Source: Manihot esculenta (Eukaryota > Streptophyta > Magnoliopsida > Malpighiales > Euphorbiaceae). From it: DNA of 64,000 nucleotides. The position numbers and the translations under genes are program-made. How positions within the stretch are numbered: position 1 is the first letter of the stretch; every line of letters starts with the position of its first letter. Under the pieces are notes generated by a model, which made no database searches, was not told the DNA's origin, and saw nothing but the letters and a program-made list of their open reading frames with translations. The stretch lies in contig NC_035167.2 in the NCBI RefSeq assembly GCF_001659605.2, positions 4,092,001 through 4,156,000 of the forward strand, in the 5' to 3' direction. Shown in pieces: positions 30,999-60,969 of this stretch.

Positions 30999-31007
30999 AA
31001 TTTAAAT

Positions 31008-32356: not shown

Positions 32357-32575
32357 TTATTTTTTCTTCTTTTTCTCGGCTTCTTTTCCGCTGGGAGCAG
32401 AGGCTTCTTTACCGCTGGGAGCAGAGGCTTCTCCACCGGGACCGGGAGCAGAGGCCTCTCCGCCGGGAGCAGAGGCCTCAGCTTCTTTCTCTTTCTCTTG
32501 AGCATTTGAAACAGAAAATAAGGAAAATATAATTAACAGTGAAATACAACAGATAAAAAGCTCAAATTTCTTCAT
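32357..32575 (-). CDS. Small secreted EASAP-repeat peptide, copy A (72 aa)
   Basis: A single-exon gene. Residues 1-25 are a clear signal peptide (MKKFELFICCISLLIIFSLF ending SVSNA, cleavage before QEKEK). The mature ~47 aa consist of an acidic/basic lead, then EASAPGG, EASAPGPGG, EASAPSGK and EASAPSGK, and an EAEKKKKK tail. Ala-Pro and Ser-Ala-Pro pairs are the kind of context glycosylated in arabinogalactan peptides, but the alternating charge and Lys tail are unusual. The family is not one I recognise. The repeats are GC-rich (gcctctgctcccggcgga-like) inside AT-rich DNA. A TATA box is present, and two further intact copies (46.95 and 60.67 kb) plus one dead copy (35.8 kb) support a real gene. 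Confidence 0.7.
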   Translation of the reverse strand: MKKFELFICCISLLIIFSLFSVSNAQEKEKEAEASAPGGEASAPGPGGEASAPSGKEASAPSGKEAEKKKKK

Positions 32576-32652
32576 CTTATAAACTCAACTATGGATTTTA
32601 CTTTTTTTTCCTTTTGTTTTATCTGTACGAATAAATATACAGAGCTTTGAAC

Positions 32653-32660
32653 CTTTTATA
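32653..32660 (-). promoter_or_regulatory. TATA box, peptide copy A
   Basis: Minus-strand TATAAAAG lies 78-85 nt upstream of the ATG. The surrounding 'gagaagtataaaagg' is conserved in all four peptide copies. Confidence 0.75.
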
Positions 32661-35600
32661 CTTCTCTTGATGTTAAGATTTGAAAGTTAAATTCCATAAT
32701 TTGAGGAGGCTCAATGAGCTAAACTAGGGAGAAAATCTTACTTATTTATTCTTCATATGACTCGGTATTTACTTTTAAAATCTTTACTAAAATTATCAAC
32801 AATGCATAATTCTAAAACACCTAGAGATTCACCCTTCAATGTAGTATTCTAGTTTTTTTTTTTTTTTTTTTTTAACTCATATGTGCTCTTTAAAATCCAT
32901 ATTTCTTAATAATGTAAATAATGTTCCTATTATAAAAATTTAAGTGGTTCATAATAATTTTTTGAGAAGAGTTGATATAAAAATTCTAGCTCATTATAAA
33001 CCAAACAGTTATATTATGAATAATATTTGAGTGTCATTTGTCCAACACAATAATATTGTTACGCTCAACAAATTATGTGCACTTTAATCTAGATAATATT
33101 TTGGATATTCAAGCATAGATAAAATTTATTTAAATATATTTCTCCATCATTTATCACGGTATTTGAAATATCTCATTCATATTATATATATCTATATATA
33201 TGCTTAAATTTAAAGTAAGAGTGCTATAATATTTCTTTCTTAACTATTTGTATAATATACTTTATCGGTTAATATTCTATATATAAAGTTGATTCACTTT
33301 AATTGTTTGATTTTGGGTATGATTGTAATCAACCTTATTAAATAATTTATAATCCAAAGCACTTTCACACAGAAGAATAAAGAGAATTACCAAACTTAAA
33401 AATAAACATTGTTGTTAATTAAAAAATTCATTATGTTTGTTATGTTTGATGTTATGAATTACTGAAATTAGACATTGTTGATGCTCTAACATTAAAAAAT
33501 TTATACATTTTATTCTCAAATCTATTTTTTCAAAACAATCATGAACCACCCATTTAATTAAAATTATAGATTAAATAAAATAAATATGGTTTAAGAAGAA
33601 GTATTTTTTTGTTTGAATATTCAAGTATTGTAGCCGTTGGCAACGAGGTAAATTTCAATTAATCAAACTCATTTTCAAAATATACATTCATTAAAATATC
33701 AATAAAATTATTCATTGGTATTGGAACAACTCCTAAATTTCACTATTATATTTGATAGTAAAATAAAAAAATAAATTATTTTTTTAAAATAAATTCATCC
33801 AAAAACTCTTTTAAAGATCAACAATCGTCATTGAATTCCACTATTCAGAATCAAATAAGATAGGAATCAAACTAGGAATGCCATCTAAGTATAGTTAGGA
33901 ATTAAATACGTCCAAGTATATGAGTTATAATTAAATTGAGTTTAGAGAGCAAAGACTAGTCTATTTGTTAATTTTTTATTTAATAAACTATAAATTCAAT
34001 GATGATGTAGCTGATATGTTAAATTAAATAATTTAAATTTAAATTATTGTTTTAATTTGTTAAGATTTAAATTAAAATTTATATTTATAATTTTATTTAG
34101 ATTATTCATCTCATATATAATTAATAAAATTATAGAACCATTTAATATCAATTACATTTTTTGTTTTTCTTTTTTCTCAAAAATTAACATAAATTCGTCA
34201 TAATTGTTTGTTCTTAATTACTCAAATTAAATATTAAATGAATTCCTCACAAAGACAAAAATCATTAAAGCATATGAAAATTAGAATTTCAAGACAGATT
34301 CAAATCGAAACGTTAGAAAATTTCAACTTGTTTAGAATCTGCTAAATTAATATGACTAGACATCTTCTCAACTACTAAATTACAATTCAGATTTATATTA
34401 TGATATGTGAAGAACAGTAGGAGCTTTTGTTGGAACTTAATTAGTTCAAACAAGTTAATTTAGATAAATAGTAAATTTATCTAAATAGAATATGAAGCCT
34501 AATCTAATTTTATATAAGCCAAGTTTAAGCGAGGAAAAAAATTATATAGAATAAAAAAGAATTAAAAAAAATTATATAACAACAATTAGTTAAAATTAAA
34601 AAAAAAAATCAACTTTAAGATGGGAGGGAGTTGCAATTCAAAGAAATGTAAAGAGGAGATGTGCTATTGAATTAGCATATGCTGCACTTGAAGAAAAATC
34701 AAATGAAAAATCTAATTATGTGAACACATGCACATCACGTATTGAATTAGGTGCTAATCAGTACTCAAGACACATGCACATCTCGTAAGGAAAAAATACA
34801 ATACTTTTATCGGTTTTTCACTTTGGGTATTTATTTACAAATGATATGATATTATAGTACTATTTAGATATAAAATTAAACCAAATTAAATCACAAACGC
34901 GGAATTGAAAAACCTTCAAGTAAAATACTAATAAAATCACAAGTTACACTTTTAAAATTTTTTTATTGAAATTATTTGAAATATATTAAGTTTGAGGTGC
35001 TTATACGACTTATAGGATTATCTCTCTATGGAACTCTTAATTATACTAAGCTTTTATACCTTTTGAATAAGAAAAAATAAATATTATATAACAATAACAA
35101 TAATTATAAGAATTTGTTGATGCTACTATATTTATACACATTATAATGGAAAGCAAAAGTTTTAAATTAGAAATTATAAATACAAAATAATTTATCATAA
35201 GTTTATAAAATATTAATTAAAAAAATATATAGTCGTATGAATGTTTTCGTACTTATAAAAATTTAGATGAGCTCCAAATATAATATTAAAATAAATTTTA
35301 GAATATATAATACTACATATACCAATTATGATTAGGAGGGTGAATAAATAATTACGTAATTATGGTTTCACCTGCTATAAAATTTCAATTAATTACGAAA
35401 TAACAATATAAATTTAAATATGTTTAATTCTAAAAAAATATATTTTAATGAGCATTGTAAAAATAAGTTTTATAACGCTATAACTTGTTTCAAGGTTTTT
35501 TACATAGAGATTAAAATTCTTTTACTTATTTGGAAGTCCAACAATTAACTTTCTTTTTAACTTAATTCTTGCTAAATGAAACAGCTACATATAAGAATAT

Positions 35601-35769
35601 TGTAAATATGAAAGTTTTACTTATTTGAAAATCTACTAATTAAATCTTACATATAAGAATATTGTAAATATGAAAGTTTTACTTATTTGAAAATCTACTA
35701 ATTAAATCTTTCTCGCCGTTTACAGCTATTGTATGTAAGAATCTTGCAAATATTTACTTTTTCAAATAT
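32661..35769. other. Duplicated noncoding spacer between peptide copies A and B
   Basis: 32680-34300 is homologous to 44370-46370 and 60985-62640. 34335-35760 is homologous to 29930-30998 plus 32080-32360. A 20-bp T run sits near 32853. The unit junction lies near 34310. No coding potential is supported. Confidence 0.65.
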
Positions 35770-36007
35770 CTACTTTTTCACTTTTTTCTCGGTTTCTTTT
35801 CCGCTAGGAGCAGAGACTTCTTTACTACCGGGAGCAGAGGCCTCTCCGCCGGGACCGGGAGCAGAGGTCTCTCCACCGGGAGCAGAGGCCTCTGCAGCCT
35901 CTTGTAACTCAGCTTATTTCTCTTTCTCTTGAGCATTTGAAACGGAAAATAAGGAAAAATATAATCAACAGTGAAATACAACAGATGAAAAGCCCAAATT
36001 TCTTCAT
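35770..36007 (-). pseudogene. EASAP-repeat peptide, copy B, frameshifted
   Basis: The start MKKFGLFICCISLLII is intact, but one extra base in the signal-peptide region (a longer T run near 35960 on the minus strand) shifts the frame to a stop. In the original frame an in-frame TAA follows the EKEK stretch. Downstream, AELQEAA, EASAPGG, ETSAPGPGG, EASAPGSK, EVSAPSGK and the tail ETEKKVKK are still readable. The AELQ-AA segment and KKVKK tail are shared with copy C, not A or D. The TATA box (36122-36129) survives. Confidence 0.85.
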
Positions 36008-36129
36008 CTTGTAAACTCAACTATGAATTTTGCTTTTTTTTTTCTTTTGTTTTATCTTTTTCAGGTTTTGAAAATATTTATTTTTTTGTTTGTTCTTGAA
36101 TTGATGAATAAACAAACTCTCCTTTTATA

Positions 36130-37540
36130 CTTCTCTTGATACTACGATTTGAAAGTTAATTTCACGATTTGAGGAGACTCAATAAGCTAAACTAGGGAGA
36201 AAATGTTTACTTCTATATTCTTCATATGACTCGGTTTTTGCTTTTAAAATCTTAACTAAAATTATCAACAACGCATAATTCTATAATATCTAGAGATTCA
36301 ACCTTGAATATAATAATAAGATTTGAACATTTAAGCTAATTTTATTTATTTTTTTAATTCATGTATGCTCTTTATGATCTATAATTTTTAATGACGTAAC
36401 TAATGTTCCTATTAAAAAAAATTTAAGTGATTCTTAATAATTTTTGCATCTCTCGTAGAAGAGTTGATATGAAAATTCTAACTAATTATAAACCAAACAG
36501 TTATATTATGATCTAATATTTTAGTATCATTTGTTCAACACAATAATATTTTTGACACTAAAAAAAATTATGTGCATTTTGATGTGGATAATATTTTTGT
36601 CCATATCAAGCGTGGATAAATTTTTTTTATATATATCATTTGTCACCGTTCTTCCAAACCATGTAAAGAGAAATGGAATAAAAATACTTATTTTTTAGTT
36701 TGCAGAGCAATGAAGATTTCATGTTCTCTTGTCATTGAATGGTTTAACTAACACTATCAGAGATAGAAAAAATTCTTAGATTTAATTTTTATGTATATTA
36801 ATATATATTTTACTAAATTATTTAGGAAAAAAATATATGTATATGAAGCTACTAATATTTGGTTTTGATTAAGATTAAAGTATTACAATTTATTATTATA
36901 AATATATTTTTCAATTAAAAAATAAATTCAATATATATGTTAGCTAAAAAATTCATAAAAATTAAAAATCTTAACTAATCTTATAAAAATTTATATTTTT
37001 AATTTATTATTTTTCATATTTTTTTTCGTTACATTGAATTTTTCTTTCTTTTATATTTATATATATATAAAGTTGAATTTAAGATTTAGTGGTTGGGTGT
37101 GACAAAATAGAAGTGGGAGATTAACTGCAAGTTATCAAATTATCTTATCAAATTTATTTAAATATTATTTTTTTAATCAAATAATTTTATTATAAATAAA
37201 TAACTCAATTTAATGTTTAAATGTCTCTCAAATAATTTTTGTATAACTTTTGCTCGTTAGTTACTGTCTCCAACGCACGAGATTTAATAGAAAATCAATA
37301 AAAATGAATTGAATAAAATATAGAGAAAATAAATGCGATAGCATTGTTAATTACATGAGAGTGAATTCGGAATATCTCATATTCAATTCTCTCCTATCTC
37401 CGGTAACTAAACGAATAATTTAGGTAAACTACTATCCATAATTTCTCATTAACCAAAATTAAAAAACCCAAAAACTTCCAATAATATTCATTATCCTCCA
37501 CCATTAATTAATTAATGGGAATTAAAAGAAAATATATTTT
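36130..37540. other. Noncoding spacer upstream of peptide copy B
   Basis: AT-rich DNA; 36130-37200 is homologous to 47330-47990. It continues into the 3' end of GDI pseudogene copy 1. Nothing else is recognised. Confidence 0.55.
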
Positions 37541-38436
37541 TGAGAAGAAACACTTGCAAACTCATGTCCAGAAAGATCAAGAAAATAGGTAGTAAACATA
37601 AATTTTCTGCAGCAAATCTTTTCTATAGATATCTATTAACTAATAGATTAGTTACATTAGTAATCAGAAAAATCTTTATCAAAAAGCTCACGTTTACCTT
37701 TCCAGTAATCTTACTATACATTTCAATCACATCTCTGCTGTGGTCTCTGCAAAACATAATTTCAAAACTATATATTAAAATGTCTAGTTTTCCAAAGTGT
37801 TCTATTTTAGCTAGTTTATCAGCCTACACAAACTCATACTGATTAGAACAACATCTTTAGATTTCGTTGTAACTTAATAGAGCATTTTCCAATTTTTGTA
37901 GAAATTTCTATGCAAGAAATAATAGTATCTCCAATGATCAAACTTTAATAGTTGCATATTCCCAACAAGAATAACTATCAAAAGATAAATGATAGTGCAA
38001 ATGTTGTGTCTATTTCTACTTATCGTATCTACTTACCGTAGATATGAAGCACTGATCGACTTCATAATGGTTCGTTGGTACACATCTATCATAAGTGTAG
38101 CAGAATATTTCATCTATAGGCCAAGCAAGTGAATTCCTGGCTTCAATTCTACTCAAGATTGTCAGTCTCCGCTTCAGTCGAAACGAAAGCATATATTTTT
38201 CTCCTTGGGACAACATCGTGGGAATAAGAACAACAAAAAAGATACTTGCAGAATGTCTCAAACTTACATTCTGTTCTTAAAAAACAATATGCATAGGAGA
38301 TACACATGCAAGAAAATGAATTGAAAATAGCAAGAAAAAGGGAAAGAGTAGTTTTCTTAGCCTATATCTCTAATTTCTTAAAAACCAATATGCATAGGGA
38401 TACACATGCAAGAAAATGAATTGAAGATACCGAGTT

Positions 38437-38552
38437 GCTTCTGTGTCAGAATAAGCTGGACTGAGTGAGAATCACTAGTGCTTGGAATAGGATGGCTTCT
38501 GTGTCAGAATAAGCTGGGCTGAGTGAGAATCACTAGTGTTTGGAATAGGATG
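38437..38552. repeat. 58-bp tandem duplication inside a GDI exon
   Basis: The segment beginning 'gcttctgtgtcagaataagc' is repeated head to tail (38437-38494, 38495-38552) with two differences. GDI copy 2 has a single copy near 49760. Because 58 is not divisible by three, this shifts the frame. Confidence 0.85.
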
Positions 38553-38637
38553 GCTCATTATACATATAGCGCGAGTGACTTTTCCAACCTTCTTGACTTG
38601 TTTTATGTGTTGAATGAAGGACAGATCGGGGAGAATT

Positions 38638-39078
38638 TGATGTAGGACTATTTAGACTCCGTCAGGAGTTTTAACCAATATCGTTTGGTTAAGACGAAAT
38701 AAGAGAAAAGATAGGCTGAAAGACTAAAAGTCTTATTAAAATTCCTAAAATATTGAAAAGTGAAAAGTGAGTTTCTAATAGCCAATGGAGGCTATTTATA
38801 ATAGAAATAAAATAATCCTAATCCTAATAGGAGTCTAAAATCCTAATAGCCAAGGGAGGTTATTTACAATAGAAATAAAATCCTAATATGCAAAAATAAT
38901 CCTAATCCTAATAGGAGTCTAAAATCCTAATAGCCAAGGGAGGCTATTTACAATAAAAATAAAACTCTAATATGCAAAATTATAAAAATATCCAAAATAT
39001 CCAAAATAATAATTAAAATATAAAAGTTAGCCCTGGTCCAAGTCTGCTATAAAATCCAAGGCTAGTTGTTCCGTGTCA
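38638..39078 (-). repeat. 3' LTR of the gypsy element (longer form)
   Basis: Boundaries TGATGTAGG and CCGTGTCA match the right LTR. It contains an internal tandem duplication of a block including 'aataggagtctaaaatccta' and about 212 bp absent from the other LTR. Confidence 0.9.
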
Positions 39079-40285
39079 TTCACTTCCACTTGTAAAGAAC
39101 TCGTCCTTGAGTTATCATCAGCAGGGTAGTACTGAAATAGATCTGCCACATTAAACGTCTTGGAAATTTTCATTTCATGTGGGAGGTCAAGAACATAGGC
39201 ATTGTCATTGATCTTCTGAATGATCCGGAATGGACCAATCTTCTTGGCGTCAAGCTTTTTCTGTCATCCACTACGCTCCTTGCGTAAATACACCATAACT
39301 TGGTCACCGACATTGAAGGACTTGAAATGCCTATATTTATCAGCTGTAGCTTTATATTTGTCATCGGCTTCTGTAAGGTATTGTTGTACCTGTTTGAAAA
39401 CATCCGCATGCTGCTTTGCCAAGTTGCTTGCTGCAATACTGTTGTAAGCAAATTCCACCTGGTCTTGGAGGATTTCACTCTCCTTTGGACCCATCTTGTA
39501 ATGAGGCAGATTCGGTAATTTTGATCCAGGAATGAGATCAATCTGATGTTGTATATCCCGCGGAGGTGGAAGCTTTAATGATTCTTCCACTATTTTAGGA
39601 AACTCCTTCAACAGCTTTTTGACGGGTGGTGGTAAAGGTGGTGCATCCTCCATTGTACCTTTTTCTCTCACCAATAAAGCCAGTGTGCCCCCAGATTTCT
39701 CAACTGCGCCTGATAGCTTCTGCACTCCCGTAGAAATAGCAACAACATTCTTCTCTTCCACTTTAGAATGTTTCGCAGAACCGGAAGGCAAGATAGTAAT
39801 CTTCTTTTGATTCCACGTGAACATGTATGAGTTCTCCCTCCCTTTATACAAAGCATCAACATCGAACTGCCAAGGGCGACCTAGCAAAATTCCACAGCAA
39901 TCCATATCCACAACATCACAATTAACAAGTTCAGTATAAGATTTACCGATCGAGATAGGCACGCTGCAAATTCTGTTGACCTCAATTGTCGGACCTTCCT
40001 TAATCCATCTGACTTTGTATGGCAAAGGATGCGGCTGTGTAGGCAACTGCAATTTCTCCATCAATTGCTTAGCTATCAGATTCTCACAACTGCAGCTATC
40101 TATAATTAGCCTGCAAATTGCCTCTCCTATTCGACACTTTGCCTGAAAAATCTTCCTCCTTTGCGTTTCATCCTCCTATTTTGTTGAACATAAGATTTTC
40201 TTCACCACATAGGTGACTTCAGGATTGGCGGCCACAGGATTGGCGGCCACATGGGGATGTGCGGCGGCGGCGGGTTGGTGGATTC
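39079..40285 (-). pseudogene. gypsy pol remnant: protease, RT start fused to integrase end
   Basis: The longest open part (40064-39264) begins in the aspartic protease. The expected Asp-Ser-Gly triad reads DSC just upstream, within LIIDSCSCENLIAKQL, so the active site looks altered. GILLGRPWQFDVDA follows. The polyprotein then runs into the start of reverse transcriptase (PPPRDIQHQIDLIPGSKLPN) and at about 39452-39462 jumps to the integrase C-terminal part (EFAYNSIAASN, then KSFNVGDQVMVYLRKER). The RT catalytic core, RNase H and most of integrase are missing. After one TGA near 39261 the frame continues through [20 protein letters not shown] to the 3' LTR. It cannot encode a working polymerase. 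Confidence 0.88.
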
Positions 40286-40468
40286 CCTGCTGCTAGGGCT
40301 GAGCAATTCTCGGTCTAAACCGAAAAACCGAACCGAACCGATTAAATTCGGTTTATCGGTTCGGTTAATCGGACAGATCGGTTTGGTTCGGTTAGTAGAT
40401 TTAAAATTATTCGGTTTTCGGTTCGGTTCGGTTTAAACATGTTAAATAACCGATCAAACCGAAAAACC

Positions 40469-40560
40469 GAACCCAACCCAACCCAGCCCAACCCAACCCA
40501 ACCCAACCCAACCCAACCCAACCCAACCCAACCCAACCCAACCCAACCCAACCCAACCCA
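40469..40560 (+). repeat. (AACCC)n microsatellite
   Basis: About 18 pentamer units are interrupted once by AGCCC. It lies directly between the CGGTT-rich end and the captured gene fragment of the hAT-like element. It is not the plant telomere unit (TTTAGGG). Confidence 0.95.
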
Positions 40561-40611
40561 GAGGGCCACCGGTTCAGTCGGCGGACGACGACGAGTTTCA
40601 CGAGTCGCCGG

Positions 40612-40911
40612 TTCTCCTTTCACCTACCAAAACCCCCCACACCCTTTCATGGATCACAGATTATATACAGCAAATGGGTTTCACGAGCATCACGTAATTC
40701 CATAGAGACCCGCATCTAGCAGTCAGAGCAGTACTGTGGAATCTTTCAGCGGTCCTAGGCCGCCGGCACAGCAAACAACAACGGCAACAAAAAAATCGAA
40801 GCTTCCGTTGGCGGCGACAGCCCCGAAGAAAAACCATCATCGGACCCCACCGATGGTACCGGAGGATTGTCATAGCGATTGTGATTCGTCGTCATCGGTG
40901 GTTGACGATAG
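40612..40911 (+). pseudogene. Captured fragment of a class II ERF repressor-type gene
   Basis: In one plus-strand frame the DNA reads SPFTYQNPPHPFMDH, HVIP, a TAG stop at 40703-40705, then SSSQSSTVESFSGPRPPAQQ, and RTPPMVPEDCHSDCDSSSSV ending VDD. The TVESFSGPRP and CHSDCDSSSSVVDD blocks are, to my knowledge, characteristic of the region between the AP2 domain and the C-terminal EAR motif of ERF3/ERF4-type repressors. Neither the AP2 domain nor the EAR motif is included. The fragment lies inside the hAT-like element and is GC-rich relative to the flanks. It is a gene piece, not a gene. Confidence 0.75.
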
Positions 40912-41246
40912 AATATTTATTAAATTATTTTATTGAAATTAGAAATAAAAAATTAAAAAAAAATACAGATTTCGGTTTGAATCGAACCGAACCGATTTTT
41001 ATCGGTTCGATTCGGTTCGGTTATACCTTTATAATCGGTTTTTTCGGTTTTATAAATTTTAACAAATCGGTTTTCGGTTTTATCGGTTCGGTTCGGTTCG
41101 GAACCGAACCGACCGATTGCACAGCCCTACCTGCTGCAGGGTCAGCTATCCGATCATCTCCCTCAATTCTGCCAAGGATGCCTCAATCGCAGCAAGTCGC
41201 GCCTCTTGGTTATCTGCCATGGTCGAACTTCGCTCTGATACCAATC

Positions 41247-41475
41247 TGATGTAGGACTATTTATAATAGAAATAAAATCCTAATATGCAAAAATAATCCT
41301 AATCCTAATAGGAGTCTAAAATCCTAATAGCCAAGGGAGGCTATTTACAATAGAAATAAAACTCTAATATGCAAAATTATAAAAATACCCAAAATATCCA
41401 AAATAATAATTAAAATATAAAAGTTAGCCCCGGTCCAAGTCTGCCATAAAATCCAAGACTAGTTGTTCCGTGTCA
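41247..41475 (-). repeat. 5' LTR of the gypsy element (shorter form)
   Basis: Same termini as the left LTR, adjacent to the primer-binding site at 41232-41243. About 212 bp near its 3' end (minus-strand sense) are missing relative to the left LTR. Confidence 0.9.
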
Positions 41476-44223: not shown

Positions 44224-46951
44224 GCTTGATTAATTTGCTATTAATCGAAACTCGAAAGAGAAAAATAAATTAAAAAAGATCTGCGTGTTTTTTTTCTTCT
44301 AAGGAAAAAGGAAACTGAAAGCCTGGGTTAATAAAGATCTCGAACTGTTGTTTAGTGGGAACCAACTATGCTAAGATTTAGAAGTTAAGTTTCATGATTT
44401 GAGAAGACTTAATAAGACTTAATAAGCTAAACAAAAGAGAAAATTTACTTATTTGTTCTTACTCAGATATTTACTTTACTACAATTATCAATAATATATA
44501 ATTTTACACCATTTAGAGATTCACCTTTTCATGTAGTATTTTAGTTTTATTTATTTATTTTAACCCATATGTGCTTTTTTTTTTTAACGAAAAATTGAGG
44601 ATTGGAGGAGTAGAATGAGACTCAGATTTACTCAAATTCACTTACCATCAGATTAAATCTGTGAGATAGTCCATAATCCTTAACGATGTAAATAATTTTT
44701 CTATTACAAAAATTTAAGTGGTTCCTAATATATGAAAATTCTAACTTATTATAAACCACATAGTTATTTATGAATAATATTTGAGTGTCATTTGTCCACC
44801 ACAGTAATATTATTTGATGCCCAAAAAATTATGTGCACTTTGATGTAGGTAATATTTTCATACATACAAAAATTTTAAATATATTTCTCGATCATTTATC
44901 ATGATATCTAAAATATCTGATTTATGCTTAAATTTAAAGTAACACAACTTTAATATTTCTTTTTCACTATTTGTATAATATACTTTATCGGTTTATATTT
45001 TATATATAAAGTTGATCCACTTTATTTGTTTGATTTTGAATATAATCGTAATCAACCTTATTAAATAGTTTATAATTCAAAGCAATTTCACATATAGGAA
45101 CAAAGAGAATTACCAATGTTCAAAATAAATATTATTGTTAATTAAAAAAATTATAATGTTTATAATGTTTGATGTTATAAATTACTGAAATTAGAAATTG
45201 TTGATGCTCTAAAGTTAAAAAATTTATATATTTTATTTTTAACCACCAATTTAATTAAAATTATAGATTAAATAAAATAAATTTAATTTAATTTACTTTT
45301 CATATTATGATAAAAAAAAAACCTTTTTCTCTATAATAACTATGAAGAAATTTTAGTAAGGGAGATTCTAATAATAGCATTAAGATTGTGAGAGAAAACT
45401 ATTAAAATTTTAATAATAGTATTAATATTTTTCTGAAAAATATTTTTCATATGGTTTGACATTTGAATTACTCATCAAAATTAGTCGAAGAAAATATTTT
45501 TCAATTAAAAATAAAAATAAGATTATTTTAAGGAGAATGACTTCCTCCTTTACTAAAACCTCTATATATAAATATGTATTTAGTCAAAGGAATTCATTTT
45601 ATGCATTTTGATAAACTTATTAAAACTTCTATATATAAATTGATTAATATATTTTATTTTTTAAATTAAAATTACACTATTGAAAATAAATTATTTTGTT
45701 GAAAAATATTATATAAATATAAATTATTTTTCATTTAAATTGATGAATAAAATAACATAATTTGATTGTTCTCTCTAATGATATCTTGTCCAATAGTTTT
45801 GTTTTATTAAACAATCTTGTCTAATAATTTAAATTTCAAAAACTAAGTTAACTCGATAACTATGGATCTTTTTTGGAAGAGAACAACAGACAAATAAGAA
45901 TGGATGAGCATGAAAGATCCAAGAAGTTTTTTTTTTTTTGTTTTAAATATTCAAGTGTTATAGTCTTTGGCAACAAGGTAAATTTCAATCAATCAGACTC
46001 ATTTTCATAATATACATTCATTAAAATACCAATAAAATTATCCACCGGTATCAGAACAACTCTCAAATTTTACTATTACATAGAGTAGGCATTCTCTTGA
46101 AAGAGTCACATTATAATAAAAAAATAATTTATTTCTTTTTATAAAAAATTTTATCAAAAAACTCTTTTAAATATCAACATTTATCATTGAGTCCCACCAT
46201 TCAGAATCAAATAAGATAGAGATCAAACTAGGAATGCCATCTAAATAAAGTCAAGAATCAAATATGTCCAAGTATATGAGCTATAATTAAATTGCGTTTA
46301 GTGTTTAAAGACTAGTCTATTTGTGTTGGCAATTGAACCACAGTATTATTTAACACTTTGATATTGTTAATTTTTTATTTAATAAACTACAAATTCAATA
46401 CTGGTATAGCTAATATGTTAAATTATAAATACAAAATAATTTATCATAATTTTATAAAATATTAATTTAAAAAAATATACTCGTATAAATGTCCAATAAT
46501 TATAAAAATATAGATGAGTTTCAAATATAATATAAAAATAAATTTTAAAATATATAAGACCACATATATCAATTATGATTAAGAGGGTGAATAAATAATT
46601 AGTAATTATGGTTTCACCATTTTAGTTATAAAATTTCAATTAATTATAAAATAATAATATAAATTTAAACATGTTTAATTTTAAAAAAATAATAAATTTT
46701 GATGAGTACTGTAAAAATAAATTTTATAACAGTATACAACCGTGAAGGTTTCTTTCTAGATAGAGATTAAGATTCTTTTAATGTGAAAGTCCAACAATTA
46801 ACTTCTTTACTTAATTCTCGCTGAATATAACATCTATATATATATATATATAAGAATATTGTAAATATGAAAATTTTATTTATTTGAAAATCTACTAATT
46901 AATTTTTTTTTAAATTTATTTTTCGACTGCATGTAAGAATCTTGCAAAAAT
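44224..46951. other. Unit remnant: peptide-gene upstream flank joined to GDI 5' flank
   Basis: From about 44365 the sequence ('gctaagatttagaagttaag', then 'aataagctaaac') matches DNA upstream of the peptide genes (32680, 36145, 60985). Homology continues to about 46370, and 46430-46950 then matches the 3' flank of a peptide gene. The peptide gene expected next to 44365 and its TATA box are absent, replaced by GDI. A SINE-like insertion is at 44574-44672. No ORF is supported. Confidence 0.65.
44574..44672 (-). mobile_element. SINE-like insertion with poly(A), minus strand
   Basis: Relative to the aligned paralogous block at 32890, about 100 bp are extra here. On the minus strand they read 'ttaatctgatggtaagtg' through 'gagtctcattctactcctcc' and end in an A run (the T run at 44575-44585). 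The tRNA-like layout is decayed. The class is inferred. Confidence 0.5.
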
Positions 46952-47239: not shown

Positions 47240-47326
47240 CTTGTAAACTCAACTATGGATTTTATTTTTTTTTCATTTTTTTTTTTGTCTGTATGAATAA
47301 ACATACGGAGCTCTAAACCTTTTATA

Positions 47327-48414
47327 CTTCTCTTGATGCTAAGATTTGGAAGTTAAATTCCATGATTTGAGGAGGCTCAATGAACTAAATTAGGAAGAAA
47401 ATTTCTACTTCTATATTTTTTACATGACTCAATATTTGCTTTTAAAATCTTAACTAAAATTATCAACAATACATAATTCTACTATATCTAGAGATTCAAC
47501 CTTCAATGTAATAATAAGATTTGAATGTTTAAACTAATTTTATTATTTTTTTAACCAATATATGCTTTTTGTGATTTATGATTCTTAATGACTTAAATAA
47601 TGTTTCTATTAAAAAAATTTAAATGGTTCCTAATAATTTTTTTGCATCTCTGAATGAAGAGTTATATAAAAATTCTAACTAATTATAAACCAAACAGTTA
47701 TATTATGAATAATATTTTAGTGTCATTTATTTAACACTATTTATTATTATAAATATATTTTTATATTAAAAAATAAATTCAATATATATGTTAGCTAAAA
47801 AAATTCATAAAAACTAAAAATCTTAACTAATCTTATAAAGATTTATATTTTTAATTTATTATTTTTCATCATTTTTTTCTATTAACTTAAGATTCAATGG
47901 TGGAGTGTGACAAAATAGAGGTTGGAGATAGAAGGCACAAGTTATCAAATATTTGAAGTTAAATAGAAAAATTTAATATCATATTATCTTATTAAATTTA
48001 CTTAAAATAGTATTTTTGTGATTGAAAGTTTTCCTCTTTGCAAATTTAAATGCAAGAGGTATTTTACAACTGTTTAAAACAATATTGCTAGGATTTATTG
48101 TCCTGAAAATGAATGATATTGTTTTGATTTTTTGTGGTGAAATCTTATCTAAAAAGCATGTGGTTAATACTTGTAGATATGCAGTTTCTTGCAAAATGAA
48201 ACTGAAAGACATAGAATTTTTAAATAATTAATTGAGGAAAATATTAAAATTAAAAATTAAACAAAATTAAAGTTCATGTATTTTATTTCTAAAAATTATA
48301 AAATATTTAAACAGTTACCTTTAAAAAATTTCTTTTAGTACATTTTAAATACTATTTTTTTTCTTCTAAAATGCACTATTATAGTATCCAAAACCACAAT
48401 CACTATTGCATTAA
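47327..48414. other. Noncoding spacer upstream of peptide copy C
   Basis: 47330-47990 is homologous to 36130-37200. A 69-codon plus-strand ORF at 48022-48231 has no start context, family match or paralogue, so I leave it unannotated. The sequence then runs into GDI copy 2. Confidence 0.55.
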
Positions 48415-51400: not shown

Positions 51401-51880
51401 AAACAAAAGGGAGGAAACATTAGAAAAATTGTTTGAATTATTGGTGCATTTGTGAAAAGTATTCACTGATTATAATTATACTAAACTAATTCTAATTTAA
51501 CTAAAATTTAACTTTATTTTTTAAGAATATGGAAGATCAAATGTATCAACCTATTAAATATAAATTTATATCTGATGACGTACTCTATTAAAAATTAATA
51601 TTTGAGAGCGCTATGATTCTGTCGGACTCGTCGCTATTCATTAATAAATTTATTTTGCAGACTAACTAATATATAAATTTTGTGGTGTCTCCTATGTTCA
51701 GATTTCCAGTTTCAATAAGGAAAACAAACAGAAGCAAGGAAATGGGAGAGGTAAATATCACAAAAATGGCAATATCATGTACTCAATGCATACCTTGGGT
51801 ATCATATCAACATTATATTCCTTACTTATACCCAAGCTTTCTGGAGGCTTGCCATCACTTCCCCTAAATCGCTTCCAAAG
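48415..51880 (-). pseudogene. GDI: Rab GDP-dissociation inhibitor pseudogene, copy 2
   Basis: This copy starts at the third exon (51880, RFRGSDGKPPESLG); exons 1 and 2, including the start codon, are deleted, with upstream flank joined directly at about 51960. The exon carrying IIANGNLVRVLIHTDV is intact near 51390-51286. The next exon has an 8-base deletion after VEAFNS relative to copy 1, and a CGA-to-TGA change at TYI-DYEEN. The following exon keeps DFIGHALALHLDDSYLDQPA but lost its acceptor and first ~28 bases. [17 protein letters not shown] and AFARLSAVYGGTYMLNKPEC are intact. The VEFD exon has its AG acceptor changed to GG near 50072. Later exons (SHSIPNTSDSHS, APRGKYIAFVSTEAETDNPD, SYDATTHFETTIDDVIEMYT, ILDLSVDLSSASV) remain readable. 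It is non-functional. Confidence 0.92.
48922..49310. repeat. ~131-bp tandem repeat, about three units, in GDI copy 2 intron
   Basis: Units begin with 'agagcatttcccaatcttcg' or variants at 48922, 49053 and 49185. Each contains 'ctatgcaagaaataatagta' and 'ccaattatagctccttagat'. GDI copy 1 has only one partial unit near 37880, so the expansion is specific to copy 2. Confidence 0.9.
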
Positions 51881-52229
51881 CTTCGATTAGAAAGAAAGTT
51901 AGAAAAGGAAATAGAAAATCAAATAAATAAAAATAAAATCATAAGAATATAATAAATAAAGATCTTGAAGTGATGTTCAGCGGGAATAAGATATGATAAG
52001 AGAATGAATTTTACTACACTTAAACTACAGTTCGGTTGGTTTATTAGTTCAATTTTATTTATATTAAAATTTGAATATCATTATTAATAATTAAAATATA
52101 ATATTTATATAAAATAAAATAATAACATAAAAATAAAATTAAAAATATTTAAAACTATTATTCTAATTTTCAAAAAAAAATTGTGCTAATTTATGTTAAA
52201 AAATAAATTATTATCCTAAAATAAACTCG
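51881..52229. other. Deletion junction and AT-rich spacer
   Basis: At about 51960 the sequence passes from GDI intron 2 ('aataaataaa') directly into 'gatcttgaagtgatgttcag'. That matches the flank upstream of GDI exon 1 in copy 1 near 44333. The rest is AT-rich and noncoding. Confidence 0.6.
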
Positions 52230-53648: not shown

Positions 53649-54014
53649 TTAGTTTCCAGCTGGTGGTGGGGAAAGGAATGGGATTGAGGGAATTGTAGTT
53701 GGGATACTGGGGATTGAGGGTATGCTTGGCATTGGAGGCAGGGTGACCTTTGGGGCAGCAGGCATCGTGGGCAAGCTCGGAAGTGGAGGCAAAGTGGGGT
53801 TGGGCAGGGAAGGTTGAGTGGTTGGCAAGGTTGGTATTGACGGCTGTGGGAGAGTTGGAATAGCAGGGATTGGTGGCATTGCAAGCTTTGGCAAATTTGG
53901 CACCGAAGGTAAAGGTGGCAATTGCAGAAGATTGCGAGCTGCTATGCTGACATCCATGCTTAAAAATGCCAAAGAGATGAAGAAAGCAAGAATGAAGCAG
54001 TTGAAAGAGGCCAT
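53649..54014 (-). CDS. PELPK-like secreted proline-rich protein, copy 2
   Basis: 121 aa, single exon, same start logic as the 29-kb copy (MASFNCFILAFFISLAFLSM, AARNLLQ). It differs from copy 1 at few residues (for example LQLPPLP for LQFPPLP, KLAMPPIP for KLAVPPIP, QPSIPTLP for QPSLPTLP). The P-L/I-P array and the C-terminal FLSPPPAGN are intact. TATATAAG lies at 54095-54102 on the minus strand. Predicted wall-associated; function not established. Confidence 0.8.
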   Translation of the reverse strand: MASFNCFILAFFISLAFLSMDVSIAARNLLQLPPLPSVPNLPKLAMPPIPAIPTLPQPSIPTLPTTQPSLPNPTLPPLPSLPTMPAAPKVTLPPMPSIPSIPSIPTTIPSIPFLSPPPAGN

Positions 54015-54094
54015 GGTTAAGAAGATGTTGCTGTAGTACAAGAGGAACAATTTGTTGTGGGTTTGGATGAGAAACAAGCTGCGTTATGGATGGG

Positions 54095-54102
54095 CTTATA
54101 TA
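54095..54102 (-). promoter_or_regulatory. TATA box, PELPK-like copy 2
   Basis: TATATAAG, at the same distance from the ATG as in copies 1 and 3. Confidence 0.7.
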
Positions 54103-54639: not shown

Positions 54640-54840
54640 CAAGCTGCTGGCAAGGTTGATAATGACGGCAGTGGGAGTTGGAATGGAAGGGATTGGTGGC
54701 ACTGCAGGCTTTGGCAAATTTTTGGCACAGAAGGCAAAAGTGGTAATTGTAGAAGATTTCGAGCTGCTAAGCTAACATCCATGCTTAAAAATGATAAAAG
54801 AGATAAAGGAAACAAGGATGAAGCTGTTGAAAGAGGCTAT
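54640..54840 (-). pseudogene. PELPK-like gene, truncated and start-less copy
   Basis: The region homologous to the signal-peptide exon starts ATA instead of ATG (54840-54838) and carries a one-base insertion before the KHGC/SMDV position that leads to a stop. A short stretch matching the LPPLPSVP and 'gccaccaatccc' region is still visible, and similarity fades near 54640 into 'ggcaag'-rich DNA. A degenerate copy of the gene's upstream flank lies at 55235-55390. Confidence 0.8.
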
Positions 54841-54849
54841 AGTTAAGAA

Positions 54850-56950
54850 GACATTGGATGCAATAAAAGAGGAATAATTTGTTGTCGGTTTGGATTCAGG
54901 AGAGTCATCGATGAAAGAAATTATACGGTGAAACCGTTGTATCACGTAAAAGTGTCTGCATACAATAAAAATAAAACAAATAAAGGAAAGGGCCAAAGGT
55001 TTACTAAAAATATTTTTGGTGAAAACTGGTCGATGTGTAAATTAGATTTGAAAATTTGATGATAAAAGTTTATCTCATAACAAAATTGCAGAGAAGAGAG
55101 AAGGAAAGGAAAAGGAAAGATTGTGATGAAAAAAAGAAAATTTTTTTTACCTTATTTAGCACTGGATATTTTTTGACATATTCTTTTAATGTATCGATAT
55201 TTTACTTACATTTATATTTTATTAAAAGTTATATAGTCACGACCATAACTAACAAGATAGTTCACCATCTCGTAAGTTTTCCGCTTATAGCTTAGCAAGC
55301 GAAGTTGTGGGGTGGATAGATATTACTGTAACTATCAAAGTTATATGATGATCAACAAAAGTATTAAGTGGGTTATCCACCAAAAAGTTTCAAGCCAACA
55401 AAATTAAATAGATATAAATAAACGTGTAAAATTAAATGAATATAAACGAATTAATAATGAGAAATATAATCCGTTTATAAGATTAAATAAATATAAATAA
55501 ATTTTTAAATAGACTTGTAACCCGTTTGTAAAATTAAATTAATACAAATGAATTTTAAATATGTTTTATAAAGAAAATATTTTTCTAACCTCTATTTATA
55601 AATTTATTACAATTACAAATGAATTTATATTTATATGTGAATTCTCTTTATAATTTGGTAAATTTTTATAGTGTCATTTTTTTTAAGGAGTAATTATAAA
55701 AAACTACATTGTGATTTAGCATATTTTCAAGTAGAGTCTTATACTTTAATTTATAATAAAAAGGATCATAGTATTTTTATCCCGTTAGCAAAATGAGATT
55801 TTTTTTTCTAATATCGTTAAATATACTGGTAAATTATGATTTACTTTCTGATATTTAATAAAAGTTATATTTTAGTCATTATATTTTTAAATTTAATATA
55901 TTAAATTTAATTTGTTGATTAATAAAATAATTACTTAATTTAAACTTAATATTTTTAATTAAAATTAATATCTATATTTTTATAGATTGATTTTAAATAT
56001 TATAATTATTAATAAATTTTTATATTTATAAATTAATCTCTCTGTTTATTGAATTTTAATATCATACTGGTTAAACACAATAAAATAAACATAAAATAAA
56101 AAAATCTGATATCTCCTTTTTATCCTAATTAATATAAAAAAATCATTGAGAAGGGAAATATTAGACTAGAAATAACTCTTTGAACTTAAATTTAGATGTA
56201 TATTGTGTTAAGGTTCTTGATTTAATTTTTATTTTATTAATTTATTTTAAAATATTAAATTTAATAAATATGTGAGGATAATTTAAAAAAGTATGTAAAT
56301 ACTTATTTATAAATAATTATAATATATAAGTACCAACATATAAGCATATTGGGATGAATTATAACTAAAGGAATTATTTTATGTTTATAAAACATAACTT
56401 TTTTTTTTGAAATAGAGGGTTGGGGGAGTCGAACCTTAGACCTTTCAAGGCTACAGGATGCACTTTCCACCAGGTTAAACCTTAGAATGCTTATAAAACA
56501 TAATTTTATAACTAAGTTTATAAATATATGAACTAAATTATATATTTTATAAGGATTTAAAATTAAAATATAATTTATCTTAATTAAAAATTATTTTTAA
56601 TTAATTGTTAAGTGACATAACAGCATTTATTAATGGTATTAAATATAAAAATCTTGCTTTGTTTATGTGAAATCAAGTGATTTTTTTTATTACAAATTAA
56701 ATTTTTCGTTAAAATTAAATTATTTAGAAAGTAAGTCATGTTAATTTCACCATGCTTATATATTGGAAGAAGATGGAAATTAAACAAACTATTAATTAAT
56801 AAACACAATAATTAATATGAAGCAACAAATCATGATAATATAATTATGTCATCACAAATTCAGTACATCCATGAATAAAACAGTCAACAATAATAATAAG
56901 ATGAAAGTAGAAACTAAAAGGGGCGAAAAACAAGTGAAGGGCTCAAATGA
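54850..56950. other. Intergenic DNA, no gene seen
   Basis: AT-rich sequence with a duplicated PELPK upstream flank at 55235-55390 and a SINE-like element at 56403-56490. From about 56770 it matches the 3' flank of the PELPK-like gene (as at 53400-53640). ORFs here (55056-55295, 56608-56808) are low-complexity and unsupported. Confidence 0.55.
56403..56490 (-). mobile_element. tRNA-related SINE-like remnant with poly(A)
   Basis: On the minus strand this reads 'ggtttaacctggtggaaagt', then a B-box-like 'ggttcgactcc' and an A run. The order A-box-like, B-box, poly(A) suggests a short tRNA-derived SINE. It is about 90 bp; ends are approximate. Confidence 0.5.
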
Positions 56951-57023
56951 CTTCACACACGCATGCAGCTAAAAGATGTAGACTCTTCTAATAAAGCAAT
57001 GGTCAAATGCATGAAATGAAGAT

Positions 57024-57389
57024 TTAGTTTCCAGATGGTGGCGGGGAAAGGAATGGGATTGAGGGAATTGTAGTTGGGATACTGGGGATTGAGGGGATGC
57101 TTGGCATTGGCGGCAGGGTGACCTTTGGGGCAGCAGGCATCGTGGGCAAGCTCGGAAGTGGAGGCAAAGTGGGGTTGGGCAGGGAAAGTTGAGTGGTTGG
57201 CAAGGTTGGTATTGACGGCTGTGGGAGAGTTGGAATAGCAGGGATTGGTGGCATTGCAAGCTTTGGCAAATTTGGCACCGAAGGCAAAGGTGGAAATTGC
57301 AGAAGATTGCGAGCTGCTATGCTGACATCCATGCTTAAAAATGACAAAAAGATAAAGAAAGCAAGGATGAAGCAGTTGAAAGAGGGCAT
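57024..57389 (-). CDS. PELPK-like secreted proline-rich protein, copy 3
   Basis: 121 aa, single exon. The second residue is Pro (MPSFNCFILAFF) where the other copies have Ala; the signal peptide and AARNLLQ are otherwise intact. Proline array and FLSPPPSGN end are present (PAGN in the others). TATATAAG is at 57469-57476 on the minus strand. Probably expressed as a wall protein like its sisters, although the MP start could change N-terminal processing before the signal peptide is removed. Confidence 0.78.
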   Translation of the reverse strand: MPSFNCFILAFFIFLSFLSMDVSIAARNLLQFPPLPSVPNLPKLAMPPIPAIPTLPQPSIPTLPTTQLSLPNPTLPPLPSLPTMPAAPKVTLPPMPSIPSIPSIPTTIPSIPFLSPPPSGN

Positions 57390-57468
57390 GGTAAGAAGAT
57401 ATTGCTGTAGTATAAGAGGAAGAATTTGTTGTGGGTTTAGATGAGAAACAAGCTGCGGTATGGATGGA

Positions 57469-57476
57469 CTTATATA
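57469..57476 (-). promoter_or_regulatory. TATA box, PELPK-like copy 3
   Basis: TATATAAG, conserved in position with the other two intact copies. Confidence 0.7.
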
Positions 57477-57539
57477 GCTGAAAATTATGAGGATAGTCAT
57501 TAATGGAGTGATGTGGCGAGGACCATAATTCCAAGGTAG

Positions 57540-59306
57540 CTCACCGTCTCATGAGTAGGTGATATTTTTGTGATGCATACTGCAACTGTCAAAGCCGTAG
57601 GATATGATGATCAACAAAAGTATTGAGTAGGTGATATTTTTGTGATCTAATTGGTGGGTTATCTACCAAAGAGTTTTCAAGGGTTGGATCGACAACTTAC
57701 GCCCAATTTATCAATCTTCCACTCGAGTTTTAATTTACATCAAATTAATTGAATCTTAAATGATTCATAATATTTATGAAATTCAAAAATATTTTACATT
57801 AACTAAAAATTCAAATGATTCATAATTTAAAATATGCTAATTAATATGATTAGACATCTTCTGAGTTATTAAATTATAATTTAGATTTATATTATGATAT
57901 GTGAAGAACACTAAGAGGTTTTGTTGGAACTTAATTAGTTCAAACAAGTTAATTTAGATAAATAGTAAATTTATCTAAATGGAATGTGAAGCCTAATCTA
58001 ATATTAAGAAAGTCAAATTTAAGCGAGGAAAAAAAATTATATAGAATAAAAAGTAATTTAAAAAAAAATTATATAAAAACAATTAGTTAAAATAAAAAAA
58101 AAATCAATTTTGAGACGGGAGGGAGTTGCAATTCAAAGAAATGTAAAGAACAGATGTGCTATTGAATTAGCATTGAATTAGACCCTAATCGGTACTCAAG
58201 ACACAAAACTAGATATTAAAATGAAAAAAATATAATACTTTTGTCAGCCTTTTGACTTTGGGTATTTGTTTACTAATGACATGATATTATAGTACTGTTT
58301 AGATATAAAATCAAATCAAATTAAATCACAAACGCGGAATTGAAAAACTTTTAAGTGAAACACTGATAAAATTACAAGTTGCATTTTTATATTTTTTATT
58401 AAAATTAATTAAAATATATTAAGTTTAAGCGAGGAAAAAAAATATAGAATAAAAAAGAATTAAAAAATTATATAAAAACAATTAGTTAAAATAAAAAAAA
58501 ATCAACTTTAAGATGGAAGGGAGTTGCAATTCAAAGAAATGTAAAGAGGAAATGTGCTATTGAATTAGCATCCGCTGTACTTGAAGAAAAATCAAATGAA
58601 AAATCTAATTATGTGAACATATGGATTGAATTAGGCCCTAATTGGTGCTCAAAACACAAAACTAGATATTAAAATGAAAAAAATACAATACTTTTATGAG
58701 CTTTTTGACTTTGGGTATTTGTTTACAAATGACTTGATATTATAGTACTATTTAGATATAAAATTAAATCACAAACGCGGTATTAAAAAACCTTCAAGTG
58801 AAACATTGATAAAATCACAAGTTACATTTTTATATTTTTTTTCTTAAAATTAATTAAAATATATTAAGTTTGAACTGCTTATACGACTTATAGGATTATC
58901 TATCTATGGAGCTCTCAATTATACTTAGCTCTTATACCCTTTTGAATAAAAAAATGAATATTATACAACAATAACAATAATTATAAGAATTTATTGATGC
59001 TACTATATTTATACACATACACATTGCATTCATAAATTATAATGGAAAGTAAAAGTTTTAAATTAGAAATTATAAATACAAAATAATTTATCATAATTTT
59101 ATAAAATATTAATTAAAAAAAAATATAGTCCTATGAATGTCATAGTAATTATAAAAATTTAGATGAGTTCCAAATATAATATAAAAATAAATTTTAAAAT
59201 ATATAATACAAGATATACCAATTATGATTATGAGGGTGAATAAATAATTACGTAATTATGGTTTCACCTGCTATAAAATTTCAATTAATTACGAAATAAC
59301 AATATA
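57540..59306. other. Duplicated spacer with an internal tandem copy
   Basis: Homologous to 29690-30998. Within it, about 58020-58400 is repeated in tandem at about 58425-58870; both contain 'gggagttgcaattcaaagaa' and 'aatcacaaacgcgg'. Noncoding. Confidence 0.7.
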
Positions 59307-59315
59307 AATTTAAGA

Positions 59316-60368
59316 GAAAATTATTTTTTAGTCTCTGAGGTATATTGTAATTAGCGAATTTGTCCCTCTATTTTTAGAACCCAACATTTTCGTCCTTGAG
59401 ATTTAATTCCATCAAAATTAAAAGTCTCTCCGTTAGTGATAGAAAAAATGATCGAACTATCATTTCTAGAACCCAACGCTTTAGTCTCTGAAATTTATTT
59501 TTTACAAATTTATAGGTCTCTCTCTCAAAGAATTGAAAGAAAAAAAAATATTTTCGTCCCTAAGATATTACATATTCAACAGATTTATCTCTCTATTATT
59601 TAAATTCAAAACTTTAGTTCTTAAAGATTAATTTCGTCAAAGATCAAGGAAGAAAATCTGAAACTCAAACCCCATAAACAAATAAAAATTTCAAAAAATT
59701 TAAGTTTCAAATTCAGTAAAGATAATAAAAATCAAAATATATAAAAATTAAATTATTAAAAATAAAAAGTTAAAACTCAATAGAAATTGCTTTTGTGATT
59801 TTGTTCGCTGTCGATCACTATTCGCCATTTGAAAAATTCATTAAAACATTTCTGACATTTTAAAAAGTCTACTAGTTAATCTTTCCATTAATTTTAGTCG
59901 TTAAGTATTATAAAAAAAATCTAAAAATACCCCTGATATAGATGGACTAATTAGTAAATTTTTTATTAATTTGAGGGACCAACTAATAATTTTTCTAAAC
60001 TATAGGGACTAAATAGTAAAATATTTGATGATAAAATTAATAGAGAAACTAACTAGTGGACTTTTTAAAATGTCAAAGATATTTTAATATATTTTTCAAA
60101 ATTGAGGGACTAAGTAGCGAGTTTTTTCATACTATAGGGTCTAAATAGTAATTTTTTCATTTTATTATTGATAAGGATATTTTTGGGATTATATTTATTC
60201 TATTTCCTTTGATTAAGTGTAAATCATTGACTTAATAGAAATTTTTTACGGAAACCTTGAATTTTGACGGAATTAAACCTCAAAGGACGAAAGTGTTGGA
60301 TTCTAAAAATAGAGGGACAAATCCGTTAATTATGATACACCTCAGGGACTTAAAAGTAATTTTTTAAC
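59316..60368. mobile_element. 1.06-kb inverted-repeat element, copy in unit D
   Basis: Same ends and same insertion point as the element at 31008-32063 (left flank near aatttaag, right flank AATTTAAAT at 60369-60377). It was therefore duplicated with the unit, not inserted independently. Noncoding. Confidence 0.85.
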
Positions 60369-60666
60369 AATTTAAATATGTTTAATTCTAAAAAAAATTA
60401 ATTTTGATGAGCACTCTAAAAATAAGTTTTATAACAGTATAACTTGTTTCAAGGTTTCTTTAAGATAGAGATTAAGATTCATTTACTTATTTGGAAGTCC
60501 AAGAATTAACTTTCTTCTTTAACTTAATTCTCGCTGAATGAAACGGTTACATAGGAGAATATTGTAAATATCAAAATTTTATTTATTTGAAAATCTAGTA
60601 ATTAAATCTTTCTTTAACTTATTTCTCGCAGCATACAACGATTGCATGCAAGAATCTTGAAAATAT

Positions 60667-60882
60667 CTACTTTTTCTTTTTTTTCTCAGCTTCTTTTCCG
60701 CTAGGAGCGGAGGCTTCTTTACCGCTGGGAGCAGAGGCTTCTCCGCCGGGACCGGGAGCAGAGGCCTCTCCGCCGGGAGCAGAGGCCTCTTCTTTCTCTT
60801 TCTCTTGAGCATTTGAAACGGAAAATAAGGAAAATATAATCAACAGTGAAATACAACATACGAAAAGCCCAAATTTCTTCAT
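60667..60882 (-). CDS. EASAP-repeat secreted peptide, copy D (71 aa)
   Basis: MKKFGLFVCCISLLIIFSLF plus SVSNA form the signal peptide. The mature part has QEKEKE, then EASAPGG, EASAPGPGG, EASAPSGK, EASAPSGK and an EAEKKKKK tail, almost identical to copy A. I chose the ATG at 60882 over an upstream in-frame Met because only this start puts the signal peptide at the N-terminus and it matches the other copies. A TATA box is at 60960-60967 (minus strand). Function unknown. Confidence 0.72.
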   Translation of the reverse strand: MKKFGLFVCCISLLIIFSLFSVSNAQEKEKEEASAPGGEASAPGPGGEASAPSGKEASAPSGKEAEKKKKK

Positions 60883-60969
60883 CTTGTAAACTGAACTATG
60901 AATTTTACTTTTTTTTCTTTTTGTTTTATGTGTATGAATAAACATACAAAACTCTCAACCTTTTATACT

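What the first reader, a model, noticed from the sequence alone, without database searches (positions are those of the whole stretch)
32357..60967. Unrecognised family of small secreted EASAP-repeat peptides in a tandem cluster
Four minus-strand copies (32357, 35770, 46952, 60667) share a signal peptide, repeated EASAP(G/S) motifs and a Lys-rich tail, and all four have the same TATA context. Three are open. The repeats are GC-rich in AT-rich DNA. Ala-Pro pairs suggest arabinogalactan-type glycosylation, but the charge pattern fits no family I can name. A young, expanding lineage-specific secreted peptide family is plausible.
Basis: partly seen in the sequence, partly recalled or inferred. Interest (0 to 1): 0.75.

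Follow-up and report, generated by a model that had tools for sequence, protein, structure and literature searches.

The report
Tandem family of small secreted peptides
A stretch of plant DNA carries three working-looking copies and one broken copy of a gene for a small, probably secreted, repetitive peptide that resembles an unusual cell-wall peptide and has very few known relatives.

Summary
Four minus-strand copies share a promoter, a signal-type N-terminus, EASAP repeats and a Lys-rich tail. A (32357-32575), C (46952-47239) and D (60667-60882) are open; B (35770-36007) is broken. The 13-mer GAAGTATAAAAGG occurs four times in the window, always 89-126 bp before these ATGs.

The family looks selected. 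A and D differ by 10 synonymous and 2 amino-acid-changing substitutions (dN/dS 0.05; Fisher P 7e-6; random placement P 0.001), with no amino-acid substitution in the predicted mature part (one codon indel). Three searches of 5.8 billion proteins found the same three relatives, best matching C, D and A, on contigs of 549-791 bases, and nothing else. These could be transcripts; I could not prove it.

Best reading: a narrowly distributed, secreted, charge-balanced peptide family, AG-peptide-like at the margin. A and D just pass one published composition screen and sit at the edge of another; C fails both. There is no GPI-type tail, and only 1-2 prolines per peptide fit a published hydroxylation motif. 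It sits among PR-peptide genes, a class also clustered in poplar. Lineage-specific secreted repeat peptides in tandem arrays are a known kind; this is a variant I found no description of.

The parts
32357..32575 (-). EASAP copy A, open, 72 aa
   Evidence: (found by the C and D queries)
35770..36007 (-). EASAP copy B, broken: one extra T in the signal-peptide codons and an in-frame TAA
46952..47239 (-). EASAP copy C, open, 95 aa, with a longer acidic/Ala spacer before three EASAP units
60667..60882 (-). EASAP copy D, open, 71 aa
32652..32664 (-). TATA-type motif GAAGTATAAAAGG of copy A
36121..36133 (-). TATA-type motif GAAGTATAAAAGG of copy B
47318..47330 (-). TATA-type motif GAAGTATAAAAGG of copy C
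60959..60971 (-). TATA-type motif GAAGTATAAAAGG of copy D
44368..45177 (-). remnant of a fifth unit: upstream region only, no coding part matched
   Evidence: nhmmer, (two pieces, E 4.4e-72 and 5.3e-31)
28936..34619 (.). duplicated block holding a PR-peptide gene and EASAP copy A; its pieces match 56814-62976 at 89.3-91.5%
   Evidence: self-BLAST
56814..62976 (.). duplicated block holding a PR-peptide gene and EASAP copy D
   Evidence: self-BLAST
29134..29499 (-). neighbouring PR-peptide (PPLP x2, C-terminal SPPP) gene, 121 aa from the MASF start
53649..54014 (-). neighbouring PR-peptide gene, 121 aa
57024..57389 (-). neighbouring PR-peptide gene, 121 aa from the MPSF start

Best explanation
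The four copies are one tandemly duplicated plant gene family. Each open copy runs from ATG to stop in one piece, with a TATA-type motif about 90 bp before the ATG. Its product has a signal peptide, probably cleaved after SVSNA, leaving a flexible apoplastic peptide of 46-70 residues that starts with Gln. The mature peptide has EASAP(GG/SGK) repeats and a Lys-rich tail; in A and D it carries 9 acidic and 9 basic residues. The likeliest job is that of an AG-peptide-like cell-wall peptide: a few prolines are hydroxylated and perhaps glycosylated, and the charged parts bind wall polymers such as pectin. Shown: the copies, the shared promoter motif, the open frames, the protein-level constraint between A and D, and the small set of relatives. 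Inferred: expression, lack of introns, secretion, cleavage, flexibility, hydroxylation, glycosylation and wall binding.
For: Four aligned copies with a shared promoter. A against D over 71 codons: 10 synonymous and 2 nonsynonymous changes, dN/dS 0.05, Fisher P 7e-6; mature part 6 and 0 over 46 codons. Placing the same kinds of substitution at random gives 2 or fewer amino-acid changes in 20 of 20,000 trials. Intact relatives best matching A, C and D (P0003, P0001, P0002) on contigs of 668, 549 and 791 bases. D and P0002 differ at 3 of 71 residues, all in the signal peptide. One GGEASAP..KEA unit is invariant in all six aligned proteins. Hydrophobic N-terminal core, hydrophilic C-terminus. AG-peptide composition: A 36.1% and D 35.2% PAST at 72 and 71 aa, against a published screen of 50-90 aa and at least 35%. 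APGGE and GPGGE fit the published five-residue hydroxylation motif.
Against: No SignalP run, transcript, proteomic or sugar data. C (95 aa, 33.7% PAST) fails the AG-peptide screen. In A and D the glycomodule index is 4/27 = 0.148, just under the published 0.15. Only 2 of 5 mature prolines in A and D, and 1 of 4 in C, fit the hydroxylation motif. P0001 keeps only one EASAP. No hydrophobic C-terminus for a GPI anchor. Against C, A and D show weaker constraint (dN/dS 0.4 over all, 0.43 in the poorly aligned mature part). The A-D coding part is hardly more alike overall (0.940) than the flanks (0.916-0.927), and synonymous divergence (10 of 48 sites) exceeds flanking divergence (125 of 1584; P 0.005); I do not explain this and it flatters dN/dS. 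Open frames alone are weak evidence: with the A-D substitution types a stop arises in only 8% of random placements. The low AlphaFold2 confidence rests on six close sequences and is weak evidence of disorder.
Confidence: 0.5

Rival explanations
1. A precursor of a signalling peptide: the repeats are cut into several small active peptides, or the Lys-rich C-terminus is the active part, and a receptor reads it.
For: Small size, signal-type N-terminus, tandem units, Lys-rich tail, Gln at the predicted mature N-terminus; no amino-acid substitution in the mature part between A and D.
Against: No match above cut-off in Pfam. The repeats differ in number between C, P0001 and A/D, whereas known hormone domains are short and fixed (recalled).
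Confidence: 0.2
2. A secreted disordered polyampholyte that acts without glycosylation, for example in water or ion holding in the wall or in stress protection.
For: Balanced charge in A and D (9 and 9), low predicted order (weak), few hydroxylation motifs.
Against: A and D fit the simplest AG-peptide screen and an Ala-Pro unit is invariant in all six proteins.
Confidence: 0.2
3. Non-functional duplicates: repeat-bearing open frames carried along in a tandem array, with no selected product.
For: One of four copies is broken, a fifth is reduced to flank, and the region is full of duplications; overall coding identity between A and D is close to that of the flanks.
Against: 10 synonymous against 2 nonsynonymous changes between A and D, and intact best matches of all three open copies elsewhere.
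Confidence: 0.07

Closest known systems
AG peptides (short arabinogalactan peptides)
   Same: Signal-type N-terminus, short length, Ala-Pro units spaced by fewer than 10 residues, PAST of at least 35% in A and D.
   Different: No GPI-type C-terminus; strong Glu/Lys content; Lys-rich tail; C fails the composition and length limits; few prolines fit the hydroxylation motif.
Lysine-rich classical AGPs
   Same: Lys-rich stretch together with Ala-Pro units.
   Different: Shorter (recalled), Lys at the very C-terminus, PAST 30-36% against a threshold of 50%.
Lineage-restricted secreted Pro-rich tandem-repeat proteins (for example PEHK of grape; PMC3149072)
   Same: Secreted-type tandem repeats, tandem gene cluster, few relatives.
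   Different: 5 Pro in 46-47 mature residues and 5 in the 27-residue repeat core of A and D, while that survey took repeats with at least 20% Pro, so the family probably falls under its limit; 'ASAP' has 0 occurrences in that paper's main text (its supplements were not seen).
PR peptides (PPLP/PELPK; poplar, PMC5073881)
   Same: Interleaved with them in the same duplicated blocks; both small, secreted-type and tandemly clustered.
   Different: Unrelated sequence; the three PR peptides here have 32-33 Pro per mature part.

Membership tests
AG peptides | 50-90 aa with at least 35% P+A+S+T (PMC5073881) | tested here: inconclusive
   A 72 aa 36.1% and D 71 aa 35.2% pass; C 95 aa 33.7% fails; of the relatives P0002 and P0003 pass and P0001 fails (criterion)
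AG peptides | 55-89 aa, at least 3 glycomodules no more than 10 residues apart, GlycoIndex at least 0.15, PASTP at least 60% (PMC5266747) | tested here: inconclusive
   A and D: 4 modules in 27 residues, 0.148, PASTP 63%; C is too long for this group, and in the group for longer AGPs with total PAST under 42% it misses the index of 0.20 (0.17) and the five modules (3)
AG peptides | N-terminal signal peptide | tested here: inconclusive
   MKK start, hydrophobic core (maximum 12-residue hydropathy 2.9-3.4), Asn-Ala before Gln; no SignalP available
AG peptides | hydrophobic C-terminal GPI signal (usual, recalled) | tested here: not met
   last 20 residues mean hydropathy -1.2 to -1.9, ends in KKKKK or KKVKK
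AG peptides | hydroxyproline-linked arabinogalactan | not testable with these tools
   only motif check: 2 of 5 Pro in A and D, 1 of 4 in C fit the hydroxylation motif
Lysine-rich classical AGPs | at least 50% PAST | tested here: not met
   30.4-36.1% over the six proteins (threshold)
PR peptides / PELPK | PPLP or PELPK repeats | tested here: not met
   no PPLP or PELPK in A, C or D, by reading the sequences
any Pfam family | score above the curated cut-off | tested here: not met
   A, C and D: 12.8-15.8 bits against cut-offs of 27.7-32.3

The most novel reading that the evidence does not exclude
A new class of lineage-restricted apoplastic peptide: a charge-balanced EASAP/Lys block peptide, neither AGP, extensin nor PRP, that duplicated together with PR-peptide genes as a paired wall-peptide locus under strong constraint on the mature peptide.
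Probability: 0.3. Interest if true: 0.6.

Novelty: new variant of a known kind. Interest (0 to 1): 0.4.

Why it matters
Plant wall peptides are known to include many family-specific repeat classes that composition screens catch only at the edge. This one is nearly invisible to those screens and matches no curated model in the libraries searched, yet two copies show protein-level constraint. It is a compact case for asking how short repetitive secreted peptides arise and are kept, and whether two unrelated wall-peptide families that duplicate as one block are used together.

Tried and rejected
Rejected: chance open frames (substitution pattern and intact relatives). Rejected: a family known to Pfam (A, C, D), NCBIfam (a prokaryote library; six members, best E 0.0077) or PDB sequences (D only, 0 matches at E up to 1). 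A scan of viral contigs found no relative (112 stretches matched a pattern, none confirmed). Searches of the paper library for EASAP with 'secreted peptide' and for three longer EASAP strings found 0 papers; this is the basis for saying I found no description, and most subscription journals are not in that library. A search for lineage-specific secreted peptides and PR peptides listed 3 papers, none on this by title, and one meant to help place the plant was uninformative. An ER-retrieval reading of the Lys tail was dropped: C and P0001 end in KKVKK, and MKK at the N-terminus would put the tail on the lumen side (reasoning, not a test). The species was not identified; the likeness of the neighbouring PR peptides to the description of those of poplar hints at a rosid such as Malpighiales, but that is a guess.

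In one search the query called A was translated one base out of frame; copy A was found there by the C and D queries, and later calls use the right start (32575). The arabinogalactosylation rule used was recalled and loose; under it 0 sites fitted in the six proteins. For hydroxylation I rely on the motif quoted in PMC7960765; the arabinogalactosylation rule itself I did not find in print here.
Full report
What is there. The window is AT-rich DNA (GC 0.29) that reads as plant. An ORF on the minus strand at the left matches DUF3591 (PF12157) well above the curated cut-off (123 bits against 25) and another just below it (20.8); from memory this is the TAF1 family, and ubiquitin-like ORFs nearby fit it by eye. 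A MADS-box ORF lies at 26.8 kb (SRF-TF, 79 bits). From about 28.9 kb to the right end the sequence is a patchwork of duplications. Within it lie the four EASAP copies and three PR-peptide genes of 121 aa, each with two PPLP units and one C-terminal SPPP. A shorter, diverged PR-type frame of 84 aa lies at 20.0-20.3 kb and a decayed one at 54.6-54.8 kb.

The four copies. A, C and D are open; B has an extra T within the signal-peptide codons and an in-frame TAA. All four share GAAGTATAAAAGG 89-126 bp before the ATG, and this 13-mer occurs nowhere else in the window. A and D sit in blocks of about 6 kb whose pieces match at 89.3-91.5% and also carry a PR-peptide gene (28936-34619 and 56814-62976). 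B and C share flanks at 84-87%, with a further series of matches reaching 43.6 and 52.0 kb. A fifth unit survives as upstream sequence at 44368-45177, and other pieces of flank are scattered about.

Is it a gene? Between A and D, 71 codons hold 10 synonymous and 2 nonsynonymous differences (dN/dS 0.05, Fisher P 7e-6). The predicted mature part has 6 and 0 over 46 codons, apart from a one-codon indel. Keeping the substitution types and placing them at random in A gives 2 or fewer amino-acid changes in 20 of 20,000 trials, against the observed 2. Against this stand three facts. The coding part as a whole is hardly more alike (0.940) than the flanks (0.916-0.927). Flanks differ at 125 of 1584 aligned sites but synonymous sites at 10 of 48 (P 0.005), an unexplained excess that makes the ratio look stronger. 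And against C the ratio is 0.4, with a poorly aligned mature part. Broken copy B shows 8 nonsynonymous changes against D with 6 synonymous, and 8 with 11 against A, in line with loosened constraint there.

Relatives. Three searches of 5.77 billion proteins, with C, with D and with an alignment of six sequences, each returned the same three proteins at E up to 10 (32, 193 and 7986 candidates scored, the last a capped list). The method reaches only relatives that share short exact words. P0001 is closest to C (81 identical of 100 aligned columns, 140 bits against 74 and 75). P0002 is closest to D (68 of 71, no gap; 68 of 72 with one gap against A). P0003 is closest to A (67 of 72, no gap; 66 of 72 with one gap against D). 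The pairing of P0002 and P0003 with D and A rests mainly on a one-codon indel. Their contigs are 549, 791 and 668 bases, the size of such mRNAs, but the tool does not say whether they are transcripts. D and P0002 differ at three residues, all in the signal peptide (chance 0.04 if placed at random); A and P0003 differ at five, three in the signal peptide and two in one SG/GS swap. So each open copy has an intact best match elsewhere, which argues against a very recent origin of the array.

What the peptide looks like. Signal-type N-terminus (MKK, hydrophobic core, Asn-Ala before Gln). In A and D the mature part has 9 acidic and 9 basic residues, no Cys and five Pro; C has 17 acidic and 13 basic. 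AlphaFold2 on the six-sequence alignment, predicting C, is confident only over the first 20 residues; later blocks of ten average 46-59, weak evidence of disorder given so shallow an alignment. A and D pass the AG-peptide screen of PMC5073881 (50-90 aa, at least 35% PAST; passages read), and C does not; that screen gave 194 poplar proteins of which 31 were kept as AG peptides, so passing it is weak evidence. With the Finding-AGP definition of PMC5266747 (passages and section 15 read), my script reproduces the paper's 21/82 for AtAGP1 and gives A and D 4/27 = 0.148 against a threshold of 0.15, with PASTP 63% against 60%. By the hydroxylation motif quoted in PMC7960765 (passages read), 2 of 5 mature Pro in A and D and 1 of 4 in C qualify. 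A recalled arabinogalactosylation rule, which I could not confirm in print, fitted no site in the six proteins. The C-terminus is hydrophilic, so a GPI anchor is not expected.

Comparison with what is known. PMC3149072 (passages read) reports that 81% of secreted Pro-rich repeat classes have very limited phylogenetic distributions, nearly half being restricted to single plant families, and that some, such as PEHK in grape and the PELPK genes, form clusters. PMC5073881 (passages) describes PR peptides with PPLP, most with a C-terminal SPPP, the 23 PPLP genes being clustered on poplar chromosome 17. The neighbours here fit that description. EASAP peptides fit the general kind but no described class that I could find.

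Verdict. A real, seemingly undescribed family of small secreted-type peptides with few relatives, under protein-level constraint between two copies. It is AG-peptide-like at the margin and embedded in a PR-peptide tandem array. Mechanism (wall binding, glycosylation) is inference.

Noticed in passing
29134-29499, 53649-54014, 57024-57389, with a diverged 84-aa frame near 20012-20263 and a decayed one at 54642-54782: Tandem PR-peptide genes (PPLP, C-terminal SPPP in the three full ones), interleaved with and duplicated together with the EASAP genes.
   Followed up: partly
32357-32575 against 60667-60882: Synonymous divergence between A and D (10 of 48 sites) exceeds flanking divergence (125 of 1584), P 0.005; cause unknown.
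   Followed up: partly
32400-32465, 35822-35896, 46998-47069 and 60704-60775, plus strand: The antisense of the repeats reads as a similar GAEASPP pattern, as the repeat DNA is partly palindromic; no sign that it is used.
   Followed up: no
38000-43600 and 49300-52000: Duplicated stretch that looks retroelement-like by eye, including an ORF at 39264-40061 without a Pfam match.
   Followed up: no
40465-40560: AACCC microsatellite of 19 units.
   Followed up: no
26813-27202: MADS-box (SRF-TF) ORF of 129 aa beside the peptide cluster.
   Followed up: no
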